From: an uncultured Desulfobacterales bacterium
GTDB lineage: Bacteria > Desulfobacterota > Desulfobacteria > Desulfobacterales > G020354645
Length of the DNA: 8,267 nucleotides
Reading direction: 5' to 3'
Assembly (NCBI GenBank): GCA_947259865.1
Contig: CAMYNZ010000275.1
Location: forward strand, 1 to 8,267
This document shows, piece by piece, positions 209 through 8,267 of the stretch (its first letter is position 1; every line of letters begins with the position of its first letter). The notes under the pieces were generated by a model that had not been told where the DNA came from, did not search any database, and saw nothing but the letters and a program-made list of their open reading frames with translations. A program made the position numbers and the translations under genes.

Positions 209-766
209 TCAGAAAATTCGGCCGTACTGGCTTCGCAAGATGACCTCGGCGGAGTCTGCACTCGCGCCGATGCCACGGGCGGTAATCCTGAATACCGTCA
301 CGTCGCCGGTACCCTTGTTATCGCCGTAACCGGACATGTTCAGGGCACCTTCCGTACCGGTGATGGTCGTGAAATTCTTGATGAAAAAGCGTGGTGCCTC
401 GTACGAACCGAAGTCAGTCCCGGCAGCGACGTGGTTCGACGAATCGGTCCACGTGGTCTGGTCGTAGAAGACGGGCTCTGCGTCTGTACGACCGAACAAT
501 CCGGCGCCGCCCGTAAAATCGCCAAGGCTGGCGATGCCCTCGATAAAGACTTCGGCCTCGCGAACGGCTGACTCGGATGTCTGAAAGGCCAGGTTGCGGT
601 CGCGGGAGTTACCGGCCATCTTCTCTTCGAGCGTCGTGCTCTGCATGCTACCGACCGCGAGCAACGTGATGATAAGCAAGATGATCAGACTAACGACGAG
701 CACCGCCCCTCCCTGTCGGGCCGATGTCGCGATGGTCTGGTTCGATGGTGCTTTGCAAGTACTCAT
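209..766 (-). CDS. pilX: PilX, type IV pilus minor pilin
   Basis: This 185-residue protein starts at the ATG at 766-764, which has a GGAG ribosome site six bases upstream; the frame is open to a TTG at 778, but that lies on the ribosome site. Residues 17-20 (RQGG) give a class III leader that would be cut after G20, followed by a hydrophobic helix (AVLVVSLIILLIITLLAVGS) and the family signature LEEKMAGNSRDRNLAFQTSE. Mature position +5 is Val rather than the usual Glu. The analogous type II secretion tip pseudopilin GspK also lacks this Glu, which fits a place at the very tip of the filament. PilX, PilV, PilW and PilY1 form the priming complex that starts pilus assembly in the inner membrane. 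The gene lies 19 bases after pilW and 23 before pilY1 in an apparent operon. No damage is seen. Confidence 0.9.
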   Translation of the reverse strand: MSTCKAPSNQTIATSARQGGAVLVVSLIILLIITLLAVGSMQSTTLEEKMAGNSRDRNLAFQTSESAVREAEVFIEGIASLGDFTGGAGLFGRTDAEPVFYDQTTWTDSSNHVAAGTDFGSYEAPRFFIKNFTTITGTEGALNMSGYGDNKGTGDVTVFRITARGIGASADSAEVILRSQYGRIF

Positions 767-772
767 GATCTG

Positions 773-776
773 CTCC
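773..776 (-). promoter_or_regulatory. Ribosome binding site of pilX
   Basis: GGAG on the minus strand, six bases before the ATG at 766. It overlaps the alternative in-frame TTG start at 778-776 and therefore favours the shorter start. Confidence 0.6.
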
Positions 777-785
777 AACGACTCA

Positions 786-1805
786 TCAGAGTCGGTTCCT
801 GACGGTGACCGTCGTTGTGTAGGTCTGGCGTAGCCGCTCGTCGGCCGCGGTGAGCGACGCGCCGAGAACGGAATAACTCTGATTCATGCCGCTGGTCAGG
901 TTGTCATCGTAGGACCGTGCAACGATCGCAAAACGGATGCTGACCACGCGCCCCATGTCGGCGACCTGGTCCGCGCGGACGTAGTAGTCCGCGATGCCGA
1001 AACCTGCGGCACCTTCGGCATCCGTATCCTCGCCGTACAGCACTTGCAGGTCCTCGACACCGTCGAGAAACTCGGCGCCATTTCGAAACAGGGCCGGTTG
1101 TCCTTCCGAACCCATCGCAACGGTATAGATGATCTCCTCCAGCCCGAAGACGGTGGCATCCGCTCCATAGACCTTGGACAGGCAATGCGCATTCGCGCCG
1201 GGACAGCCCGGATTGGACGCGTTGTAATTGCCCGGCTCAGTCGTACTGCCGGTGTTATGCACGATCGTCCCGGATGTGTCCGGATTGGCATTTGATACCT
1301 GGAATATATCGGCGGCTTCGCAGTCAGAGACAAAGAGGATATCGCCCTGCTCAAGACCGTTACCCGCGGCGGATTTGAGATTGGCGGATGCCTGCGGGCC
1401 ATAGGGCGGCTGCAACGCGAGACCGCTGTTGTTGCCGCCGCGCAGGATCAACGTGTCGGGACTGCCGGGCCCGCCCTCCATTCCTCCGATGCCTCCCGCT
1501 CCGAAATCGATATATCCGGCACCGGCATTGTTGAGGTTATTGACGACCTTGGTAATGTCGGACGCGCAGCCCCAGAAATCCGCCATTCGAATATCCCGGG
1601 ACATAATCTCGAGGGCCATGCGACCGGTTTCCTGCATCCGCGCAGTTGCTTCGTGAACCCGGTGAGTCTGCCGGGATGACGAAAACACCTGCACCACACT
1701 GCCGAGCAGGAACAGGCTCAGCAACATTGCGATCATGATCTCGATCATCGAGACACCCGCCTGCCTGCTTTTGAGATTGACCCTCTGCATGGAACTCGTG
1801 ATCAC
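786..1805 (-). CDS. pilW: PilW, type IV pilus minor pilin
   Basis: 339 residues from a GTG at 1805 that overlaps the pilV stop codon (GTGA), implying translational coupling; an in-frame ATG at 1790 (Met6) is an alternative start, and neither has a strong ribosome site. The prepilin leader ends at Gly17 and is followed by VSMIEIMIAMLLSLFLLGSV. Position +1 is Val instead of the usual Phe, and the Glu at +5 (E22) is kept, as needed for methylation and assembly. After the helix comes a PilW-typical stretch (ARMQETGRMALEIMSRDIRMADFWGC, residues about 55-80), then a long polar domain with cysteines that may pair. The C-terminal part (FLDGVEDLQVLYGED, then RVVSIRFAIVARS) also matches the family. PilW works with PilV, PilX and PilY1 to prime pilus assembly. 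Confidence 0.9.
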   Translation of the reverse strand: MITSSMQRVNLKSRQAGVSMIEIMIAMLLSLFLLGSVVQVFSSSRQTHRVHEATARMQETGRMALEIMSRDIRMADFWGCASDITKVVNNLNNAGAGYIDFGAGGIGGMEGGPGSPDTLILRGGNNSGLALQPPYGPQASANLKSAAGNGLEQGDILFVSDCEAADIFQVSNANPDTSGTIVHNTGSTTEPGNYNASNPGCPGANAHCLSKVYGADATVFGLEEIIYTVAMGSEGQPALFRNGAEFLDGVEDLQVLYGEDTDAEGAAGFGIADYYVRADQVADMGRVVSIRFAIVARSYDDNLTSGMNQSYSVLGASLTAADERLRQTYTTTVTVRNRL

Positions 1806-2218: not shown

Positions 2219-2250
2219 TGACCCCAATTTAGCTGTTATTGGAGAGGACC

Positions 2251-3204
2251 ATGGCATTTTTCAATGACCTTACCGTACTTTCCCTGGAGCAGGCAACCGT
2301 TTTGCCCTATCTAACCTATCGCCTGGCCCATGATGGGATGCATGTCATCCGCTTGGAACACCCCGTTTACGGAGATCCCAATCGATTCATCGGCGAAAAT
2401 GTTCTCAACGAAAAACGAATGAACGCCTATTTTTTGTGCATCAACGCCGGTAAGAAAGCGCTGACATTGAATCTGGTGGAGGATGAAGGCCAGGAGATTT
2501 TTCGTTCATTGATCAAAGAACTCAATGTGGACATTTTTGCGACCAATCAACTGCCCAAAAACTACCAGAAACTGGGCATCGATTATGACAGCTTAAAATC
2601 TTTGAAGCCGGATATCATCTGGCTGGGTGTTACCGGTTTTGGCCCTGACAGCAATGAAGCCGCCTACGATCCCATATTACAGGCCCGGTCGGGTTTGATG
2701 GAATTAACCGGTGAGGCCGAAGGCGACCCCCAGGTGGTGGGCATCCCCCTGCCGGATATGGGTACCAGTGAGCACGCCTATGGGTTGCTTATGAAAGCGC
2801 TTTACCAGCGCCAGGTTACCGGAGAGGGCAGTTGTATCCACATGGCCATGTTTGAATCTTCCGTATCGTGGCTGACCGTGCCGATTACCCTGACCGGCAG
2901 TTTCGGGAAAAATATCAGCCGCCGGGGGAATACGCATGAATTTTTTGCGCCGGTATCTGTTTATCAGACCCAAAACGGTTTTGTTTATATAGCAGTCGGC
3001 AACGATCGTCAGTGGAAAACGATTGTCGCTCAGGATATGTTTAAGGCCCTGGATAAGCCGGAGTATGAAAACAACGCAGGCCGCATAAAAGATGTAAAAC
3101 AATTGAATCAGGCCATAAGTAAAATTACCCGCAAGCACACGTCTGAAGAACTGATTGACATGTTCACAACCCTTACGGTTCCGATCAGTCGGCGAACAAA
3201 ATAA
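2251..3204 (+). CDS. Family III (CaiB/BaiF) acyl-CoA transferase, C-terminally damaged
   Basis: 317 residues from the ATG at 2251, preceded by GGAGAGG at 2241-2247; a TTG at 2239 is in frame but lies before the ribosome site. Family III CoA-transferases move CoA between carboxylic acids through an aspartyl-CoA anhydride. Family features are VLSLEQATVLPYLTYRLAHD (9-28), RLEHPVYGDPNR, INAGKKALTLNL (64-75), YDPILQARSGLMELTGE (139-155) and LPDMGTSEHAYGLLMALY-like sequence at 167-184. D169 in PDMGTSEHA is the likely catalytic aspartate. The reading frame ends abruptly after TLTVPIS at residue 313; relatives of about 395-400 residues continue for roughly 80 more, and the last 29 codons of that tail survive downstream in another frame. 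About 50 residues are therefore deleted. The enzyme would lack part of its interlocked dimer fold and is probably inactive unless the deletion is an assembly error. The substrate cannot be read from sequence. Confidence 0.85.
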   Translation: MAFFNDLTVLSLEQATVLPYLTYRLAHDGMHVIRLEHPVYGDPNRFIGENVLNEKRMNAYFLCINAGKKALTLNLVEDEGQEIFRSLIKELNVDIFATNQLPKNYQKLGIDYDSLKSLKPDIIWLGVTGFGPDSNEAAYDPILQARSGLMELTGEAEGDPQVVGIPLPDMGTSEHAYGLLMKALYQRQVTGEGSCIHMAMFESSVSWLTVPITLTGSFGKNISRRGNTHEFFAPVSVYQTQNGFVYIAVGNDRQWKTIVAQDMFKALDKPEYENNAGRIKDVKQLNQAISKITRKHTSEELIDMFTTLTVPISRRTK

Positions 3205-3277
3205 CGACATATACGGCCGGAAACTGGGTTATTCGGATGATGATCTTGTCCGTTTGAAGGAAAACGGAATTATTTAA
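3191..3277 (+). pseudogene. Out-of-frame C-terminal remnant of the CoA-transferase
   Basis: Read one frame away from the gene above, these bases encode GEQNNDIYGRKLGYSDDD (3191-3244), then LVRLKENGII and a TAA stop. This matches the conserved C-terminal end of CaiB/BaiF enzymes (GEHNxEIYGxxLGYSxEDLxxLKExGII). It begins within a few bases of where the main frame departs from the family, so the break lies around 3186-3192. A deletion of a non-multiple of three, about 50 codons long, explains both the shift and the missing segment. Confidence 0.8.
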
Positions 3278-3308
3278 GATTTGGCAAATTAACTATAGGG
3301 ACAGCACG

Positions 3309-4016
3309 ATGAGAAAAAGAGCGGTGTTAAACGATCTGGACCTCGGGCCGCTGCAGGCTTTTCAGGAACGAAAATCTTTAGGGGAACATGTTTTTGAAAG
3401 CCTGAAGCATTCGATTATCAGGGGGAAAATATCCTCGGGTGAATGGCTGGTTGAAAGCCACATCGCCGAAACGCTGGGAATCAGCCGAACGCCCGTACGG
3501 GAGGCGATTCACAAACTTGAGCGCGAAGGGCTCATCGAGCGTCAACCCCGGGGCGGCTTCACCGTTCTGGGCCTCAACCGCAATGATATCGAAGAGACCT
3601 TCGGTATTCGCAGCGTGCTGGAGGGCTATGCTGCCCGGCTTGCAGCCGTCAAACATAACGAAGAAGAACTCGCCGCACTGGAACAGAAAATTGAAGAATT
3701 CCAGGATGCCCTGGATAGAAGAAAGATGGAGGTCTTACCGGTGATCAACACCGAATTTCATGATTTGCTTTATGCGCTGAGCAAGAATCCAAAACTCCTG
3801 AATATGATCAACGGCTTGCAGGATCAGATTTATCGCTATAGAGAAATGATCTTGAAGGAAAAAAAATTTGCGGTCACCAGTAACCGGGATCACATTCAAA
3901 TGTTGAAACACATTCGCAAGCGCGACGCCGAAGGAGCCGAACGTTTGGTGCGGGACCATATATTAAGAGGGCAGGAAATGGTGCTAAAGGTATATGACCG
4001 GCAGCGGCAGGATTAA
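3309..4016 (+). CDS. GntR-family transcriptional regulator, FCD (FadR/VanR) subgroup
   Basis: 235 residues from the ATG at 3309 with AGGGA about eight bases upstream. Residues about 20-88 are the winged helix-turn-helix; the recognition helix and wing read SRTPVREAIHKLEREGLIER (59-78) followed by QPRGGFTV, the diagnostic GntR pattern. Residues about 93-222 form the all-helical FCD effector domain. Its likely metal-binding set is complete: N147 and H151 (NTEFH), H195 (DHIQMLKH) and H217 (RDHI), suggesting a carboxylic acid ligand bound through a divalent metal, as in other FCD proteins. It lies 31 bases after the CoA-transferase remnant and 28 before the mutase small subunit, inside the operon it probably controls, with a matching palindrome over the operon promoter at 2141-2155. 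Such regulators are usually repressors released by a pathway substrate or intermediate. The actual ligand is unknown. Confidence 0.9.
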   Translation: MRKRAVLNDLDLGPLQAFQERKSLGEHVFESLKHSIIRGKISSGEWLVESHIAETLGISRTPVREAIHKLEREGLIERQPRGGFTVLGLNRNDIEETFGIRSVLEGYAARLAAVKHNEEELAALEQKIEEFQDALDRRKMEVLPVINTEFHDLLYALSKNPKLLNMINGLQDQIYRYREMILKEKKFAVTSNRDHIQMLKHIRKRDAEGAERLVRDHILRGQEMVLKVYDRQRQD

Positions 4017-4044
4017 CCAGCAGAATTATGACGGGAAGAATAGC

Positions 4045-4440
4045 ATGACACGAAAAAAAATAAAAATACTGATCGGCAAACCCGGTCTGGATGGACATGA
4101 TCGCGGTGCCAAGGTAACTGCTCTGGCTTTAAGAGATGCTGGCTTGGAAGTTATCTATACCGGACTCCACCAGACCGTTGAGCAGATTGTCAGAACGGCC
4201 TTACAGGAAGCGGTAGATGTGGTCGGTTTAAGTATTATGTCCGGCGCCCACATTCCCATCTGTCAGAAGCTTTTAGAAATGATGAAAGCTGAAGGGCTTC
4301 AGGAAATTCCGGTGGTCGTGGGAGGGGTTATCCCCAAACAGGATATACCCAAACTGAGTAAGCTGGGCATTGCCGGTGTTTTTCCCGGAGGGACGCACTT
4401 TGATGAAATCGTGAGCGGCGTTAGTAAAGTCGTCAAGTAA
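4045..4440 (+). CDS. Acyl-CoA mutase small subunit, cobalamin-binding
   Basis: 131 residues from the ATG at 4045, with GGGAAG six bases upstream; an ATG at 3994 is in frame but lies inside the upstream gene. It is a stand-alone B12-binding domain of the methylmalonyl-CoA mutase type. The DxHxxG motif is complete (D16, H18, G21), so the cofactor can bind base-off/His-on with H18 as lower ligand. K12 matches the Lys of the Lys-Asp-His triad of methylmalonyl-CoA mutase. The other two cobalamin motifs are also present: GLSIMSGAH (61-69) and VVGGVIP (91-97). Two-subunit mutases of this layout include archaeal methylmalonyl-CoA mutase, isobutyryl-CoA mutase and 2-hydroxyisobutyryl-CoA mutase. Its partner is the large subunit starting at 4547. 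About 100 bases of palindromic spacer separate the two genes, which is unusual for subunits needed in equal amounts. Confidence 0.92.
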   Translation: MTRKKIKILIGKPGLDGHDRGAKVTALALRDAGLEVIYTGLHQTVEQIVRTALQEAVDVVGLSIMSGAHIPICQKLLEMMKAEGLQEIPVVVGGVIPKQDIPKLSKLGIAGVFPGGTHFDEIVSGVSKVVK

Positions 4441-4546: not shown

Positions 4547-6181
4547 ATGGGAGTGGCAAAATACATTAAAGACGAAAAAGATGCGATTAAGGAAGTCATC
4601 TATCAGTCGGGCATCAAGATTAAACCGGTCTACACCCCCAAAGATCTCGAAGAAGTCGGTTTTGAATACGAAAATGATCTGGGGGATCCTGGGGAATATC
4701 CCTTCACACGCAGCCTGCACCCTCAGGGTTACCGCTCACGGGCCTGGACCACTCGACAATACACCGGTTTTGGTACGCCCCAGGAGACCAATGAACGCTT
4801 TAAGTTAATGATATCACATGGGCAAACCGGTTTGAATGTCGCTTTTGATTTGCCGACACAGATGGGATACGACTCCGATGATCCCAAGGCCCTGGGCGAG
4901 ATCGGTCGGGTCGGGATGGCCATCGATTCTCTGCGTGATTTTGAAATTGCCTTTGACGGCATTCCACTGGATCGTATCGGATCGGGGCTAACCATCAATG
5001 CGGTTGCCTCAATTATGCTGGCCATGTATCAGGCCGCTGCGGAAAAATTCGGCTACCCCAAGGAAAAAATCAGCGCCACTCCCCAAAACGACATTCTCAA
5101 AGAAATGATTGGTCGCGGCGCCTGGATATTTCCAGTTGAACACGCCGTACGTCTGGTAGGAGACAGCATCGAATACTCGGTCAGGGAACTGCCGCGTTGT
5201 AATCCGGTCAGTATCTGCGGATATCATATCCGTGAATCAGGGGCCAACCCTGCCCAGGAAATCGCCTGTGCTTTTGAAATCGCCAAAGCCTATATCGACA
5301 ATGTCAAGGGCCGGGGGTTGGCGGTTGAGGATTTTGTCGGGCGGTTTTCTTTTAACCTGAATGTTTTTGGCAACCTCTGGGAGCAGATCGCCAAATTCCG
5401 GGCTGCTCGCAAGTTATGGGCCAAGATGCTTAAGGAAGAATACGGCGTTCAGGAAAAGAAAAAGCTGTTTCTCAGGGGGCTTTTCGGCGGGGGCGGCAGC
5501 GGCCTGACCAAGGATCAACCGGAAAACAATATCATGCGCGGGGCCTTTTATGCCCTGGGCGCTGCGCTCAGCGGTGCCCAAACGACTGCCCTGTGTTCCT
5601 TTGATGAAGCCTACACGATTCCGACCGAAAGAGCGGCCCTCTTATCTCTGCGCACCCTTGAAATCATTATGGACGAGGTTGGACTGCGCGATACCGTCGA
5701 TCCACTGGCGGGATCGTATTTCATTGAGACCCTGACCCTGCAGATGGAAGAAAAAATCCTGGATGAAATGCAACAGATTCAGGAAGTCGGCGGGATGGTC
5801 CATGCCGTCGCCACCGGTTTTATCCAGCGAAAAGTTGCCCAGCAGGCGTATGAATATGAAAGCGGAATTCAAAGGGGTGAATATATCAAGGTCGGCGTTA
5901 ACAAATATACGGAAGGCACCGAAGCGCAAACTGATGTGGAACTTCATGAATACAACGAACAATGGGTCGACCAACAGGTTGCCAGCCTCAAGAAGCTTCG
6001 CAGAACCCGTGATAACCGGGAAGTCACGCGCCTGCTAAAAGAATTAGAAAAGGGTGCGCGCGATGGGAAAAATGTGATGCCCCTTCTGGTCGACTGTTGT
6101 CGGGCCTATGCAACCGTAGGTGAAATGGCCGGGGTATTTCGAGATGTTTTTGGTGAATGGACCGAACCCAGTATTTTCTAA
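4547..6181 (+). CDS. Methylmalonyl-CoA mutase-like acyl-CoA mutase, large (catalytic) subunit
   Basis: 544 residues from the ATG at 4547, with AAGGAG five bases upstream; length is normal for the large chain of a two-subunit mutase, and there is no B12 domain, which comes from the preceding gene. The (beta/alpha)8 barrel is recognisable from TRQYTGFGTPQETNERFK (69-86), GLNVAFDLPTQMGYDSDD, PQNDILKEMIGRG (179-191), GYHIRESGAN (225-234) and TVDPLAGSYFIE. By eye-alignment to Propionibacterium methylmalonyl-CoA mutase (numbers recalled), Y89, Q197, R207, H244, E247, R283 and E370 correspond to Y72, Q180, R190, H227, E230, R266 and E354, all kept. Y72 and R190 distinguish it from isobutyryl- and 2-hydroxyisobutyryl-CoA mutases and favour a carboxylated acyl-CoA. 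The conserved THxQTxG loop is replaced by GLFGGGGSG (311-319), and N366 by C350. I read it as a divergent mutase whose substrate is not certainly methylmalonyl-CoA. Confidence 0.9.
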   Translation: MGVAKYIKDEKDAIKEVIYQSGIKIKPVYTPKDLEEVGFEYENDLGDPGEYPFTRSLHPQGYRSRAWTTRQYTGFGTPQETNERFKLMISHGQTGLNVAFDLPTQMGYDSDDPKALGEIGRVGMAIDSLRDFEIAFDGIPLDRIGSGLTINAVASIMLAMYQAAAEKFGYPKEKISATPQNDILKEMIGRGAWIFPVEHAVRLVGDSIEYSVRELPRCNPVSICGYHIRESGANPAQEIACAFEIAKAYIDNVKGRGLAVEDFVGRFSFNLNVFGNLWEQIAKFRAARKLWAKMLKEEYGVQEKKKLFLRGLFGGGGSGLTKDQPENNIMRGAFYALGAALSGAQTTALCSFDEAYTIPTERAALLSLRTLEIIMDEVGLRDTVDPLAGSYFIETLTLQMEEKILDEMQQIQEVGGMVHAVATGFIQRKVAQQAYEYESGIQRGEYIKVGVNKYTEGTEAQTDVELHEYNEQWVDQQVASLKKLRRTRDNREVTRLLKELEKGARDGKNVMPLLVDCCRAYATVGEMAGVFRDVFGEWTEPSIF

Positions 6182-6522: not shown

Positions 6523-8267
6523 GTGGGAAACGCTTCTTACAGGTTGGGCTGTGACATCGGCGGTACCTTTACAGACTTTGTGCTGGTCAATGATGAAACC
6601 GGCGAGTTTCAGATCAACAAATGTTTGACGACACCGGCAGATCCTTCAGACGCGGTGGAAGCGGGCATTCGCGGTTTGTTGGAACGGGTTTCGGGGTTTA
6701 TGCCTAAAATTGATGAGGTTATTCACGGCACGACGCTGGTGATAAATGCCATCATCGAAAGAAAGGGCGCGAAAACAGCGCTGATCACTACCCGGGGCTT
6801 TCGGGATGTCCTCGAGCTGGGACGCGAGATTCGATATGACGCCTATGACATATTTGCCGAATATCCGGAACCGCTCGTCCCCCGGTCGCGCCGCCGAGAA
6901 GTAAACGAGCGGATCAGGGCCGACGGCCGTGTAATGATGCAGTTAAATCCGGCAGAGGTCAAGCAGGTGCTTGACGGGCTGTGTGATTCAGGGATTGAAT
7001 CACTGGCCGTATGCCTGATTAATTCCTATGAGAATCCAGCGCACGAAATTCAGATCAAAGAGATCGTAAACAAACGGGCACCTCAGATATCGTTGTCGAC
7101 CTCTTATGAAGTATTGCCCCAGATCCGTGAATACGAGCGAACCTGCACCACCGCCACCAACGCCTACGTTAAGCCCATTACGGCAAAATATCTGGCCAAA
7201 CTTTCTGCCAGATTAGAATCCCTCGGCTTTCAGGGAAAGCTTTTCATCATGCTCTCCAGCGGTGGTATTACCTCCGTAGAAACCGCCTGCGAATATCCGG
7301 TTAGGATCATTGAATCCGGGCCGACAGCAGCAGTAATCGCGTCACAGCATTATGGTAAAATGTTTCAGATCAAGGATATGTTCTGTTTTGATATGGGCGG
7401 AACAACCGCCAAATCCTGCCTGATTCAAAAAGGTCACGCCGGGCTGGTATCCACCTTTGAAGTCGGTCGCGTTCAGCGATTCAAAAAAGGCAGTGGTTTA
7501 CCCATACAGGTCCCGGTGGTGGACTTGATGGAAATCGGAGCCGGCGGCGGGAGTATCGCACGCATGAGCAAAATGGGGCTTTTGCAGGTTGGACCGCAAA
7601 GCGCCGGTGCCGATCCCGGACCGGCCTGTTACAACCGCGGCGGTAAAAACCCGACCGTGACGGATGCCGATCTGGTGCTGGGATATCTGGATCCGAATTA
7701 TTTTCTGGGCGGAACCATGCCGCTGGACAAAAATGCTTCGGAAAAAGCAATCGAAGAAAAAGTCGCCAAACCCCTTGGGACCCAGGTTACGGAAGCCGCC
7801 TTCGGTATTCACGATCTGATTAACGAGACCATGGCGGCGGCCGCTAAAACCCATATTGCTGAAAAAGGCGGCAATCCAAAGGTTGTGACAATCTCTGCAT
7901 TCGGGGGCGCCGGACCGGTTCACGCATACGGCCTGGCCAAAAAAATTGGGGCCCCGCGCATTCTGGTCCCACCCCTTGCCGGAGTCGGATCCGCTCTTGG
8001 ATTTTTTACGGCACCGGTCGCCTTTGATCTGACCCGCAGCCACCGGGTCGCCCTGGATGATGCTGATTTTAAGCAGATCGAACAGCTATTTGGAGAGCTT
8101 GAGAAGGAAGGCGCTGCCATTTTGCAGGCAGCGGATAAAGATCAAAAAGTTATTATTGAGCGCACACTGCTGATGCGATTTGTGGGGCAGGGTGCTGAAA
8201 CGGATCTGGCCATTGATGCCAAACCGTTTGATCAATGGAAAAAAGAACAAATCAGAGAACTTTTTGA
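6523..8267 (+). CDS. HyuA-type hydantoinase/oxoprolinase/acetone carboxylase subunit, cut by window edge
   Basis: 581 codons are present and the frame is still open at base 8,267; family members have about 680-720 residues, so the C-terminal domain is incomplete. The start is the GTG at 6523 with AGGAG at 6511-6515. Residues about 8-185 are the hydantoinase A N-terminal domain, opening with CDIGGTFTDFVLV (D11 of the phosphate-binding loop) and including HGTTLVINAIIERKGAK. Residues about 205-490 are the hydantoinase A domain, with the second ATP loop FDMGGTTAKS (D290), EIGAGGGSIA (338-347), SAGADPGPACYNRGG and FGGAGPVHAYGLA (460-472). The family couples ATP hydrolysis to opening of cyclic amides (N-methylhydantoin, 5-oxoproline) or carboxylation of ketones (acetone, acetophenone), normally with a HyuB partner, which would lie just downstream. 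The sequence does not tell which reaction applies. It follows the mutase on the same strand after the palindromic spacer. Confidence 0.88.
   Translation, partial: MGNASYRLGCDIGGTFTDFVLVNDETGEFQINKCLTTPADPSDAVEAGIRGLLERVSGFMPKIDEVIHGTTLVINAIIERKGAKTALITTRGFRDVLELGREIRYDAYDIFAEYPEPLVPRSRRREVNERIRADGRVMMQLNPAEVKQVLDGLCDSGIESLAVCLINSYENPAHEIQIKEIVNKRAPQISLSTSYEVLPQIREYERTCTTATNAYVKPITAKYLAKLSARLESLGFQGKLFIMLSSGGITSVETACEYPVRIIESGPTAAVIASQHYGKMFQIKDMFCFDMGGTTAKSCLIQKGHAGLVSTFEVGRVQRFKKGSGLPIQVPVVDLMEIGAGGGSIARMSKMGLLQVGPQSAGADPGPACYNRGGKNPTVTDADLVLGYLDPNYFLGGTMPLDKNASEKAIEEKVAKPLGTQVTEAAFGIHDLINETMAAAAKTHIAEKGGNPKVVTISAFGGAGPVHAYGLAKKIGAPRILVPPLAGVGSALGFFTAPVAFDLTRSHRVALDDADFKQIEQLFGELEKEGAAILQAADKDQKVIIERTLLMRFVGQGAETDLAIDAKPFDQWKKEQIRELF

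What the first reader, a model, noticed from the sequence alone, without database searches (positions are those of the whole stretch)
5477..5605. Mutase large subunit with a glycine-rich loop in place of the conserved THxQTxG active-site motif
The residues that hold the carboxylated substrate in methylmalonyl-CoA mutase (counterparts of Y89, Q197, R207, H244, R283) are all present, but the segment holding H328 and Q330 reads GLFGGGGSG, giving Leu and Gly at those places, and H364 and N366 are replaced by Ala and Cys (QTTALCSFDEA). Spacing on both sides is preserved, so this is a coherent variant and not damage. Known methylmalonyl-, ethylmalonyl-, isobutyryl- and 2-hydroxyisobutyryl-CoA mutases, as far as I recall, keep the His/Gln motif. 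With the CoA-transferase and HyuA neighbours it suggests a different substrate, probably one carrying a free carboxylate.
Basis: partly seen in the sequence, partly recalled or inferred. Interest (0 to 1): 0.72.

Follow-up and report, generated by a model that had tools for sequence, protein, structure and literature searches.

The report
Glycine-loop B12 mutase for indoleacetate breakdown
This is most likely the vitamin-B12-dependent rearranging enzyme of a known oxygen-free pathway that breaks down the plant hormone indoleacetate, with an active-site loop emptied to glycine, probably to fit an aromatic ring; its gene neighbourhood argues for that role, but the protein itself was not tested.

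Summary
The mutase large subunit (4547-6181 +) keeps the carboxylate-holding Tyr/Gln/Arg/His, but the counterparts of H328, Q330, H364 and N366 are Leu, Gly, Ala and Cys. The trait is conserved: [LI]G[AG]C in 360 of 360 proteins from three loop-bearing queries and in 76 of 80 related loci, and one clade, 100/100, with the loop columns removed. Four characterised enzymes (human, P. shermanii and E. coli MCM; HcmA) read H/Q/H/N.

Neighbours in relatives (family III CoA-transferase, HyuAB, PaaK-like ligase, molybdenum hydroxylase, ETF, dehydrogenase with the GGG motif published for IaaF) match the anaerobic indoleacetate (iaa) operon. The mutase fits IaaG of IaaGH: (2-aminophenyl)succinyl-CoA to (2-aminobenzyl)malonyl-CoA. 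Some loci also carry indolepyruvate-oxidoreductase-like genes.

Other undescribed mutases also change this quartet. New member of a known kind.

The parts
4547..6181 (+). Mutase large subunit (IaaG-type), 544 aa
   Evidence: PF01642 E 5.6e-177; nearest solved structure HcmA 4r3u by sequence and by fold, TM 0.91
5474..5509 (+). Glycine loop RGLFGGGGSGLT in place of R-T-H-x-Q-T-S-G
5579..5611 (+). QTTALCSFDEA; H364 and N366 counterparts are Ala and Cys, E370 kept
4045..4440 (+). B12-binding small subunit (IaaH-type) with DGHDRG
   Evidence: PF02310 3.8e-24, TIGR00640 2.5e-42 (run on 4042-4440); DxHxxG in 59 of 59 neighbours clustered as small subunit
6523..8265 (+). HyuA-type subunit (proposed 2-oxoindoleacetyl-CoA lactamase alpha), runs off the window end
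   Evidence: PF01968, PF05378; relatives of it beside other Gly-loop mutases
2239..3204 (+). Family III CoA-transferase (proposed IaaL), shortened against its relatives
   Evidence: PF02515 1.9e-70; 321 aa against a median of 396 in 43 relatives
3309..4016 (+). GntR/FCD regulator of the cluster
   Evidence: PF00392, PF07729; 52 cluster members among 80 related loci

Best explanation
The gene is the large subunit of an IaaGH-type, adenosylcobalamin-dependent arylsuccinyl-CoA mutase in an anaerobic indoleacetate (tryptophan) degradation operon of a Desulfobacterales-like bacterium. Proposed route: indoleacetate is bound to CoA by the PaaK-like ligase (or made as indoleacetyl-CoA from indolepyruvate), hydroxylated at C2 by the molybdenum enzyme, opened by the ATP-dependent HyuAB lactamase to (2-aminophenyl)succinyl-CoA, its CoA is moved to the carboxyl next to the aryl-bearing carbon by the family III transferase, and the mutase shifts the thioester group to give (2-aminobenzyl)malonyl-CoA. 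The Tyr89/Arg207/His244/Gln197 counterparts hold the free carboxylate and thioester as in methylmalonyl-CoA mutase; Leu/Gly/Ala/Cys in place of His328/Gln330/His364/Asn366 empty the space on the side of the migrating carbon, where the aryl ring must sit; the product radical is benzylic. Shown: sequence, conservation, clade, gene neighbourhood. Inferred: substrate, reaction, regiochemistry, the pocket role of the loop.
For: Clade: all 26 Gly-loop rows are one side of a branch, 100/100, loop columns removed (79-row quick tree, 29 rows, SH-aLRT 100). Neighbourhood: with flanks of up to 3 kb, HyuA lies beside 9 of 11 Gly-loop mutases and 0 of 29 other mutases of the 40 stretches fetched (Fisher p 2e-7, relatedness not corrected). 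Relatives carry CoA-transferase III, EtfB, EtfA, acyl-CoA dehydrogenase, HyuA/B, PaaK-like ligase and Mo hydroxylase. [quoted passage not shown] of 35 clustered dehydrogenases in the 80 loci 30 read GGG (27 by a strict pattern; L056, L078, L079 read), the other five (L016, L017, L041, L050, L067) read YEG. The paper also says that predicted iaa operons of sulfate reducers carry an ETF paralogue, as seen. [quoted passage not shown] IaaL is discussed as a family III transferase (PMC11659651, passages). IorA/IorB-like genes stand upstream in seven loci. In 9 of 10 genomes whose locus shows no HyuA behind the mutase a HyuA of 68-72% identity exists, about 8 kb downstream on the same contig in the three I compared (G298, G001, G392).
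Against: No IaaF orthologue in the 8 genomes that hold the first eight loci, those closest to the window (E<=1e-80); best hits in four of them are 35-37%. A control with the same query rings in 6 of 6 other Gly-loop genomes at 46-100% and again in neither of two of the eight. GGG alone is not specific: an unrelated dehydrogenase with IGGGADEI occurs in G002 and G003. The model's loop has pLDDT 55-73, so the pocket is not modelled. The window ends inside HyuA, and its CoA-transferase is truncated. HyuAB is only 30-39% alike in part of the loci; 1 of 10 genomes had no HyuA match. Despite 8 kb on the downstream side, L012, L044, L053, L076 and L080 show at most CoA-transferase and/or HyuA of the genes sought, and G002's operon shows no CoA-transferase and only the FAD subunit of the Mo enzyme.
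Confidence: 0.77

Rival explanations
1. A Gly-loop mutase for another C2-substituted succinyl-CoA: the window's own IaaF-less subclade may act on a different aryl- or heteroaryl-succinyl-CoA, with the product handled by other enzymes.
For: No IaaF orthologue in 8 of 8 closest genomes (control); a thiolase-like gene follows the ligase in L002, L003, L005, L007 and L015; an MmdA-like carboxyltransferase, in several loci next to a YEG dehydrogenase, stands upstream in six IaaF-less loci.
Against: In G003 the CoA-transferase, HyuA/B, ligase and Mo-enzyme FAD and large subunits are 75-80% identical to those of IaaF-bearing loci (the FeS subunit 67%); G002 has HyuA/B, ligase and FAD subunit at 77-81%. 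The loop RGLFGGGGSGL is the same in window and IaaF-bearing L009.
Confidence: 0.13
2. Alkylsuccinyl-CoA mutase of fumarate-addition alkane degradation ((1-methylalkyl)succinyl-CoA to (2-methylalkyl)malonyl-CoA).
For: Same reaction geometry (recalled chemistry) and a similar group of hosts; PMC8360864 names alkylmalonyl-CoA and (2-aminobenzyl)malonyl-CoA side by side.
Against: The neighbours are a lactamase, Mo hydroxylase and PaaK-like ligase, for which I know no need in an alkane route; none of the shared gene clusters that I annotated is an alkylsuccinate synthase, but not all clusters were annotated and I did not search for that enzyme by profile.
Confidence: 0.04
3. An ordinary methylmalonyl-CoA mutase, or a catalytically dead subunit like the small (MutA) partner of bacterial MCM, whose loop has drifted.
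For: Pfam and public names call it methylmalonyl-CoA mutase.
Against: Loop glycines are invariant across 58 rows, E370 and the carboxylate site are kept in 360 of 360, its small subunit keeps DxHxxG, and mutases with the usual HxQ and H-x-N motifs occur in 5 of 5 genomes examined that also hold the Gly-loop one.
Confidence: 0.03

Closest known systems
IaaGH, phenylsuccinyl-CoA/benzylmalonyl-CoA mutase of Aromatoleum aromaticum (iaa operon)
   Same: Split B12 mutase co-encoded with a family III CoA-transferase, HyuAB-type lactamase, CoA ligase and, in many relatives, a GGG-motif IaaF-type dehydrogenase
   Different: Sequence of A. aromaticum IaaG not compared; the relatives here add their own ETF genes, as PMC8360864 reports for sulfate reducers; the genomes closest to the window lack an IaaF orthologue
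HcmA, 2-hydroxyisobutyryl-CoA mutase large subunit (4r3u)
   Same: Best solved match by sequence (E 5.9e-128) and fold (TM 0.91); separate large subunit
   Different: HcmA has Ile/Gln at Y89/R207 and keeps H/Q/H/N; the window does the reverse
Methylmalonyl-CoA mutase (P. shermanii, human, E. coli ScpA)
   Same: Same fold, same Y89/Q197/R207/H244/E370
   Different: H328/Q330/H364/N366 replaced by L/G/A/C; 38% identical to ScpA, 38% to the human and 32-33% to the P. shermanii enzyme in fold alignments; B12 domain on a separate subunit

Membership tests
Acyl-CoA mutase family (PF01642), large subunit | Full-length MM_CoA_mutase domain and barrel fold | tested here: met
   (20-536 of 544 matched)
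Acyl-CoA mutase family, AdoCbl dependence | Partner with base-off B12 motif DxHxxG | tested here: met
   DGHDRG in ORF 4045-4440; 59 of 59 neighbours. A second pattern of mine for the GG part matched 1 of 59; it was badly chosen, since the window reads VGGV
Methylmalonyl-CoA mutase type active site | His/Gln at 328/330 and His/Asn at 364/366 | tested here: not met
   L/G/A/C; hence not filed as methylmalonyl-CoA mutase. Characterised ethylmalonyl-CoA mutase was not in the alignment
IaaGH-type mutase | Carboxylate-binding Y/Q/R/H as needed for a succinyl-/malonyl-CoA type substrate | tested here: met
IaaGH-type mutase | Sequence orthology to A. aromaticum IaaG | not tested
   No route to that sequence: genome-contig scan spent; the genome search needs a genome centre in that phylum, and the E. 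coli locus was not held
IaaGH-type mutase | Turns phenylsuccinyl-CoA into benzylmalonyl-CoA | not testable with these tools
   needs enzyme assay
iaa operon | Family III CoA-transferase (IaaL) near the mutase | tested here: met
   window 2239-3204, shortened; 43 cluster members in 80 loci
iaa operon | HyuAB-type 2-oxoindoleacetyl-CoA lactamase | tested here: met
   HyuA in the window; HyuB in relatives; substrate not tested
iaa operon | CoA ligase and C2-hydroxylating Mo enzyme | tested here: met
   in the window's subclade: ligase and all three Mo subunits in G003 (L213), ligase and FAD subunit alone in G002 (L216); the window ends before that place
iaa operon | IaaF orthologue with GGG motif | tested here: not met
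   absent from the 8 genomes closest to the window (control); present in 27 of 56 loci with 5 kb or more upstream of the mutase. So the window's cluster is not filed as a complete iaa operon

The most novel reading that the evidence does not exclude
Positions 328/330/364/366 form a second specificity axis of B12 acyl-CoA mutases, independent of the known 89/207 axis: mutases that keep the carboxylate site but change this quartet (the Gly-loop clade for aryl groups, and 12 other rows here such as SGNA, FGHA, GVFC, LGYA, VFFC) rearrange a whole range of undescribed bulky succinyl-/malonyl-CoA substrates, and in the window's own subclade arylmalonyl-CoA is decarboxylated by a biotin-type carboxyltransferase plus an ordinary dehydrogenase instead of IaaF.
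Probability: 0.35. Interest if true: 0.65.

Novelty: new member of a known kind. Interest (0 to 1): 0.42.

Why it matters
It ties an odd active-site loop to a named reaction and gives a sequence signature by which candidate anaerobic indoleacetate degraders can be picked out of the many genes named methylmalonyl-CoA mutase: 78 of 395 Desulfobacterota genomes hold a relative of at least 64% identity (the loop was read only in those fetched), and the second Gly-loop group has members named Anaerolineae, Thermoplasmata, Latescibacteria and Planctomycetota. It also marks a place in the fold to test for substrate control.

Tried and rejected
Considered and dropped: (1) a frameshift or damage in the loop, rejected by conservation. 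(2) A His/Gln motif shifted along the loop, rejected by gapless flanks. (3) Reading the pocket from a model: the AlphaFold2 model (pTM 0.89) has pLDDT 55-73 in the blocks from residue 311 to 360, and no coordinates were among the files open to scripts, so it only confirms the fold. (4) Reaching A. aromaticum IaaG: the plasmid search gave no record at 60% or more; two further protein searches with divergent queries listed no Aromatoleum or Azoarcus name, but most rows carry no name at all. (5) Literature on residues 328/330/366: one search found nothing usable; PMC4413051 passages cover only Glu370. My statement that H328, Q330, H364 and N366 line the substrate/adenosyl side is recalled, not from a call. 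(6) NCBIfam names for the neighbours: none reached its cut-off (the mutase subunits themselves did), so IaaL, IaaB, HyuAB and IorAB are assignments by homology and context. (7) The MmdA plus YEG-dehydrogenase pair as a substitute for IaaF: among 56 loci with 5 kb or more upstream, script flags gave 25 with GGG, 27 after I read L036 and L070 by eye; 6 have MmdA and none both (hypergeometric 0.015, relatedness not corrected). A seventh MmdA locus, L074, fell below the flank limit and shows no dehydrogenase. The pair could equally serve propionyl- or glutaryl-CoA, so it is only noted.

Papers: PMC8360864 (passages and two sections, of the second only part 1); PMC5214803, PMC6737245, PMC9613470, PMC4207700, PMC11599936, PMC4413051, PMC11659651 (passages only); PMC6129605 (searched, no passage matched); all others in search listings only. 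Ebenau-Jehle 2012 was not held, Schuhle 2016 was not looked up; both are known only through PMC8360864. That the Gly loop is not described in print rests on searches of one open-licence library.

Full report
Observation. The window holds, on the + strand, a family III CoA-transferase (2239-3204), a GntR regulator (3309-4016), a B12-binding small subunit (4045-4440), a mutase large subunit (4547-6181) and a HyuA-type protein that runs off the end (6523-8265). Against P. shermanii, human and E. coli MCM and HcmA, the window keeps Q197, H244, R283 and E370 (with Y89 and R207 as in the MCMs) but has L, G, A, C at H328, Q330, H364, N366.

Conservation and clade. Three protein searches each listed their best 120; over these 360 proteins (55-97% identical to the window) the quartet is [LI]G[AG]C in 360, residues 314-317 are GGGG in 359 (one gap), and Y/Q/R/H and E370 are kept in 360. 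All three queries bear the loop, so this is not an unbiased sample. With the loop columns removed, Gly-loop rows are one side of a branch with 100/100 support in a 60-row tree (19 of 79 rows dropped beforehand) and SH-aLRT 100 in the 79-row quick tree. Of the 50 non-Gly rows in the 79-row alignment, 21 read HQHN; 12 keep Y/Q/R/H but change at least one of the four. So this is a place where several undescribed mutases differ.

Neighbourhood. In the 80 loci the shared gene clusters include mutase large and small subunits, GntR, CoA-transferase III, HyuA, HyuB, a molybdenum hydroxylase (three subunits), a PaaK-like CoA ligase, an acyl-CoA dehydrogenase, EtfA with a ferredoxin part, EtfB, and in some a TRAP transporter or a MeaB-like GTPase (TRAP and MeaB named by eye). 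With flanks of up to 3 kb, HyuA lies beside 9 of 11 Gly-loop mutases and 0 of 29 others of the 40 stretches I fetched. In 10 genomes whose locus shows no HyuA behind the mutase, most of them with the TRAP genes in its place, 9 have a HyuA of 68-72% identity, about 8 kb downstream on the same contig in the three compared (G298, G001, G392). Against this, L012, L044, L053, L076 and L080 show few or none of the genes sought in the stretch held.

Match to the iaa pathway. PMC8360864 describes IaaB (ligase), IaaL (phenylsuccinyl-CoA transferase), IaaGH (mutase) and IaaF (benzylmalonyl-CoA dehydrogenase), says that predicted iaa operons of several strict anaerobes including sulfate reducers and Ferroglobus carry an ETF paralogue, and that IaaF enzymes have GGG instead of YEG. 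Of 35 clustered dehydrogenases 30 read GGG (27 by a strict pattern; L056, L078, L079); the other five (L016, L017, L041, L050, L067) are YEG enzymes standing 2.6-6.1 kb from the mutase. PMC5214803 assigns predicted lactamases of the pathway to the hydantoinase branch. IorA- and IorB-like genes stand upstream of the CoA-transferase in L023, L035, L037, L041, L050 and L052, and IorB alone in L077; the L035 IorA scores 634.6 bits against a cut-off of 650.9. They would deliver indoleacetyl-CoA from indolepyruvate.

How it would work. By the established chemistry of these enzymes (recalled), the deoxyadenosyl radical takes a hydrogen from the CH2 that bears the free carboxylate, the thioester group moves there from the aryl-bearing carbon, and the product radical is benzylic. 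The ring must find room in the pocket; four side chains changed to Leu/Gly/Ala/Cys would make it. This pocket role is inference: the model's loop is of low confidence.

What does not fit. The eight genomes that hold the first eight loci, two of them single-chromosome MAGs, have no IaaF orthologue at E<=1e-80; four examined further have best hits of 35-37%. The control is sound: the same query rings in 6 of 6 other Gly-loop genomes at 46-100%, and again in neither of two of the eight. In this subclade a thiolase-like gene follows the ligase in five loci (L002, L003, L005, L007, L015), and six IaaF-less loci among 56 have an MmdA-like carboxyltransferase upstream, none together with IaaF. I therefore call the mutase IaaG-type but not the window's cluster a complete iaa operon.

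Judgement. Observation confirmed and specific; function most likely that of IaaGH; the enzyme kind is known; the loop signature was not found described in the library searched.

Noticed in passing
window 2239-3280: The CoA-transferase ORF is 321 aa against a median of 396 in relatives: it stops soon after TVPIS, and its conserved C-terminal end is seen in another frame at about 3190-3280, so a stretch of some 55 codons is missing; real decay or an assembly fault.
   Followed up: partly
L002, L015, L016, L041, L050, L067 upstream of the operon: MmdA-like carboxyltransferase, in L016, L041, L050 and L067 next to a YEG acyl-CoA dehydrogenase (and in L002's genome G407 one lies just beyond the MmdA gene, L236), only in loci without IaaF; possible other route for arylmalonyl-CoA, or unrelated propionyl-/glutaryl-CoA genes.
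   Followed up: partly
L088, L102, L104, L106, L111, L143, L144, L147, L178, L180, L181, L182: Other mutases with intact carboxylate-holding residues but a changed 328/330/364/366 quartet, candidates for undescribed acyl-CoA rearrangements.
   Followed up: no
genome G044: 19 PF01642 matches in one Desulfobacterota genome; several genomes of the 395-genome search show 20-33 first-look candidates.
   Followed up: no
L145, L146, L148, L158, L167, L184, L187-L190: HyuA/HyuB beside Gly-loop mutases come in two kinds, one 63-81% alike to the reference type and one only 30-39%, as if swapped.
   Followed up: no
genome G004 (L096, L100): Two Gly-loop mutases in one genome.
   Followed up: no
P0127, P0128, P0150, P0188: Gly-loop group members that also carry the B12-binding domain, 686-698 aa, one named Thermoplasmata.
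   Followed up: no
window 209-1805 (-): Type IV pilus genes of PilX and PilW type lie upstream on the other strand.
   Followed up: partly
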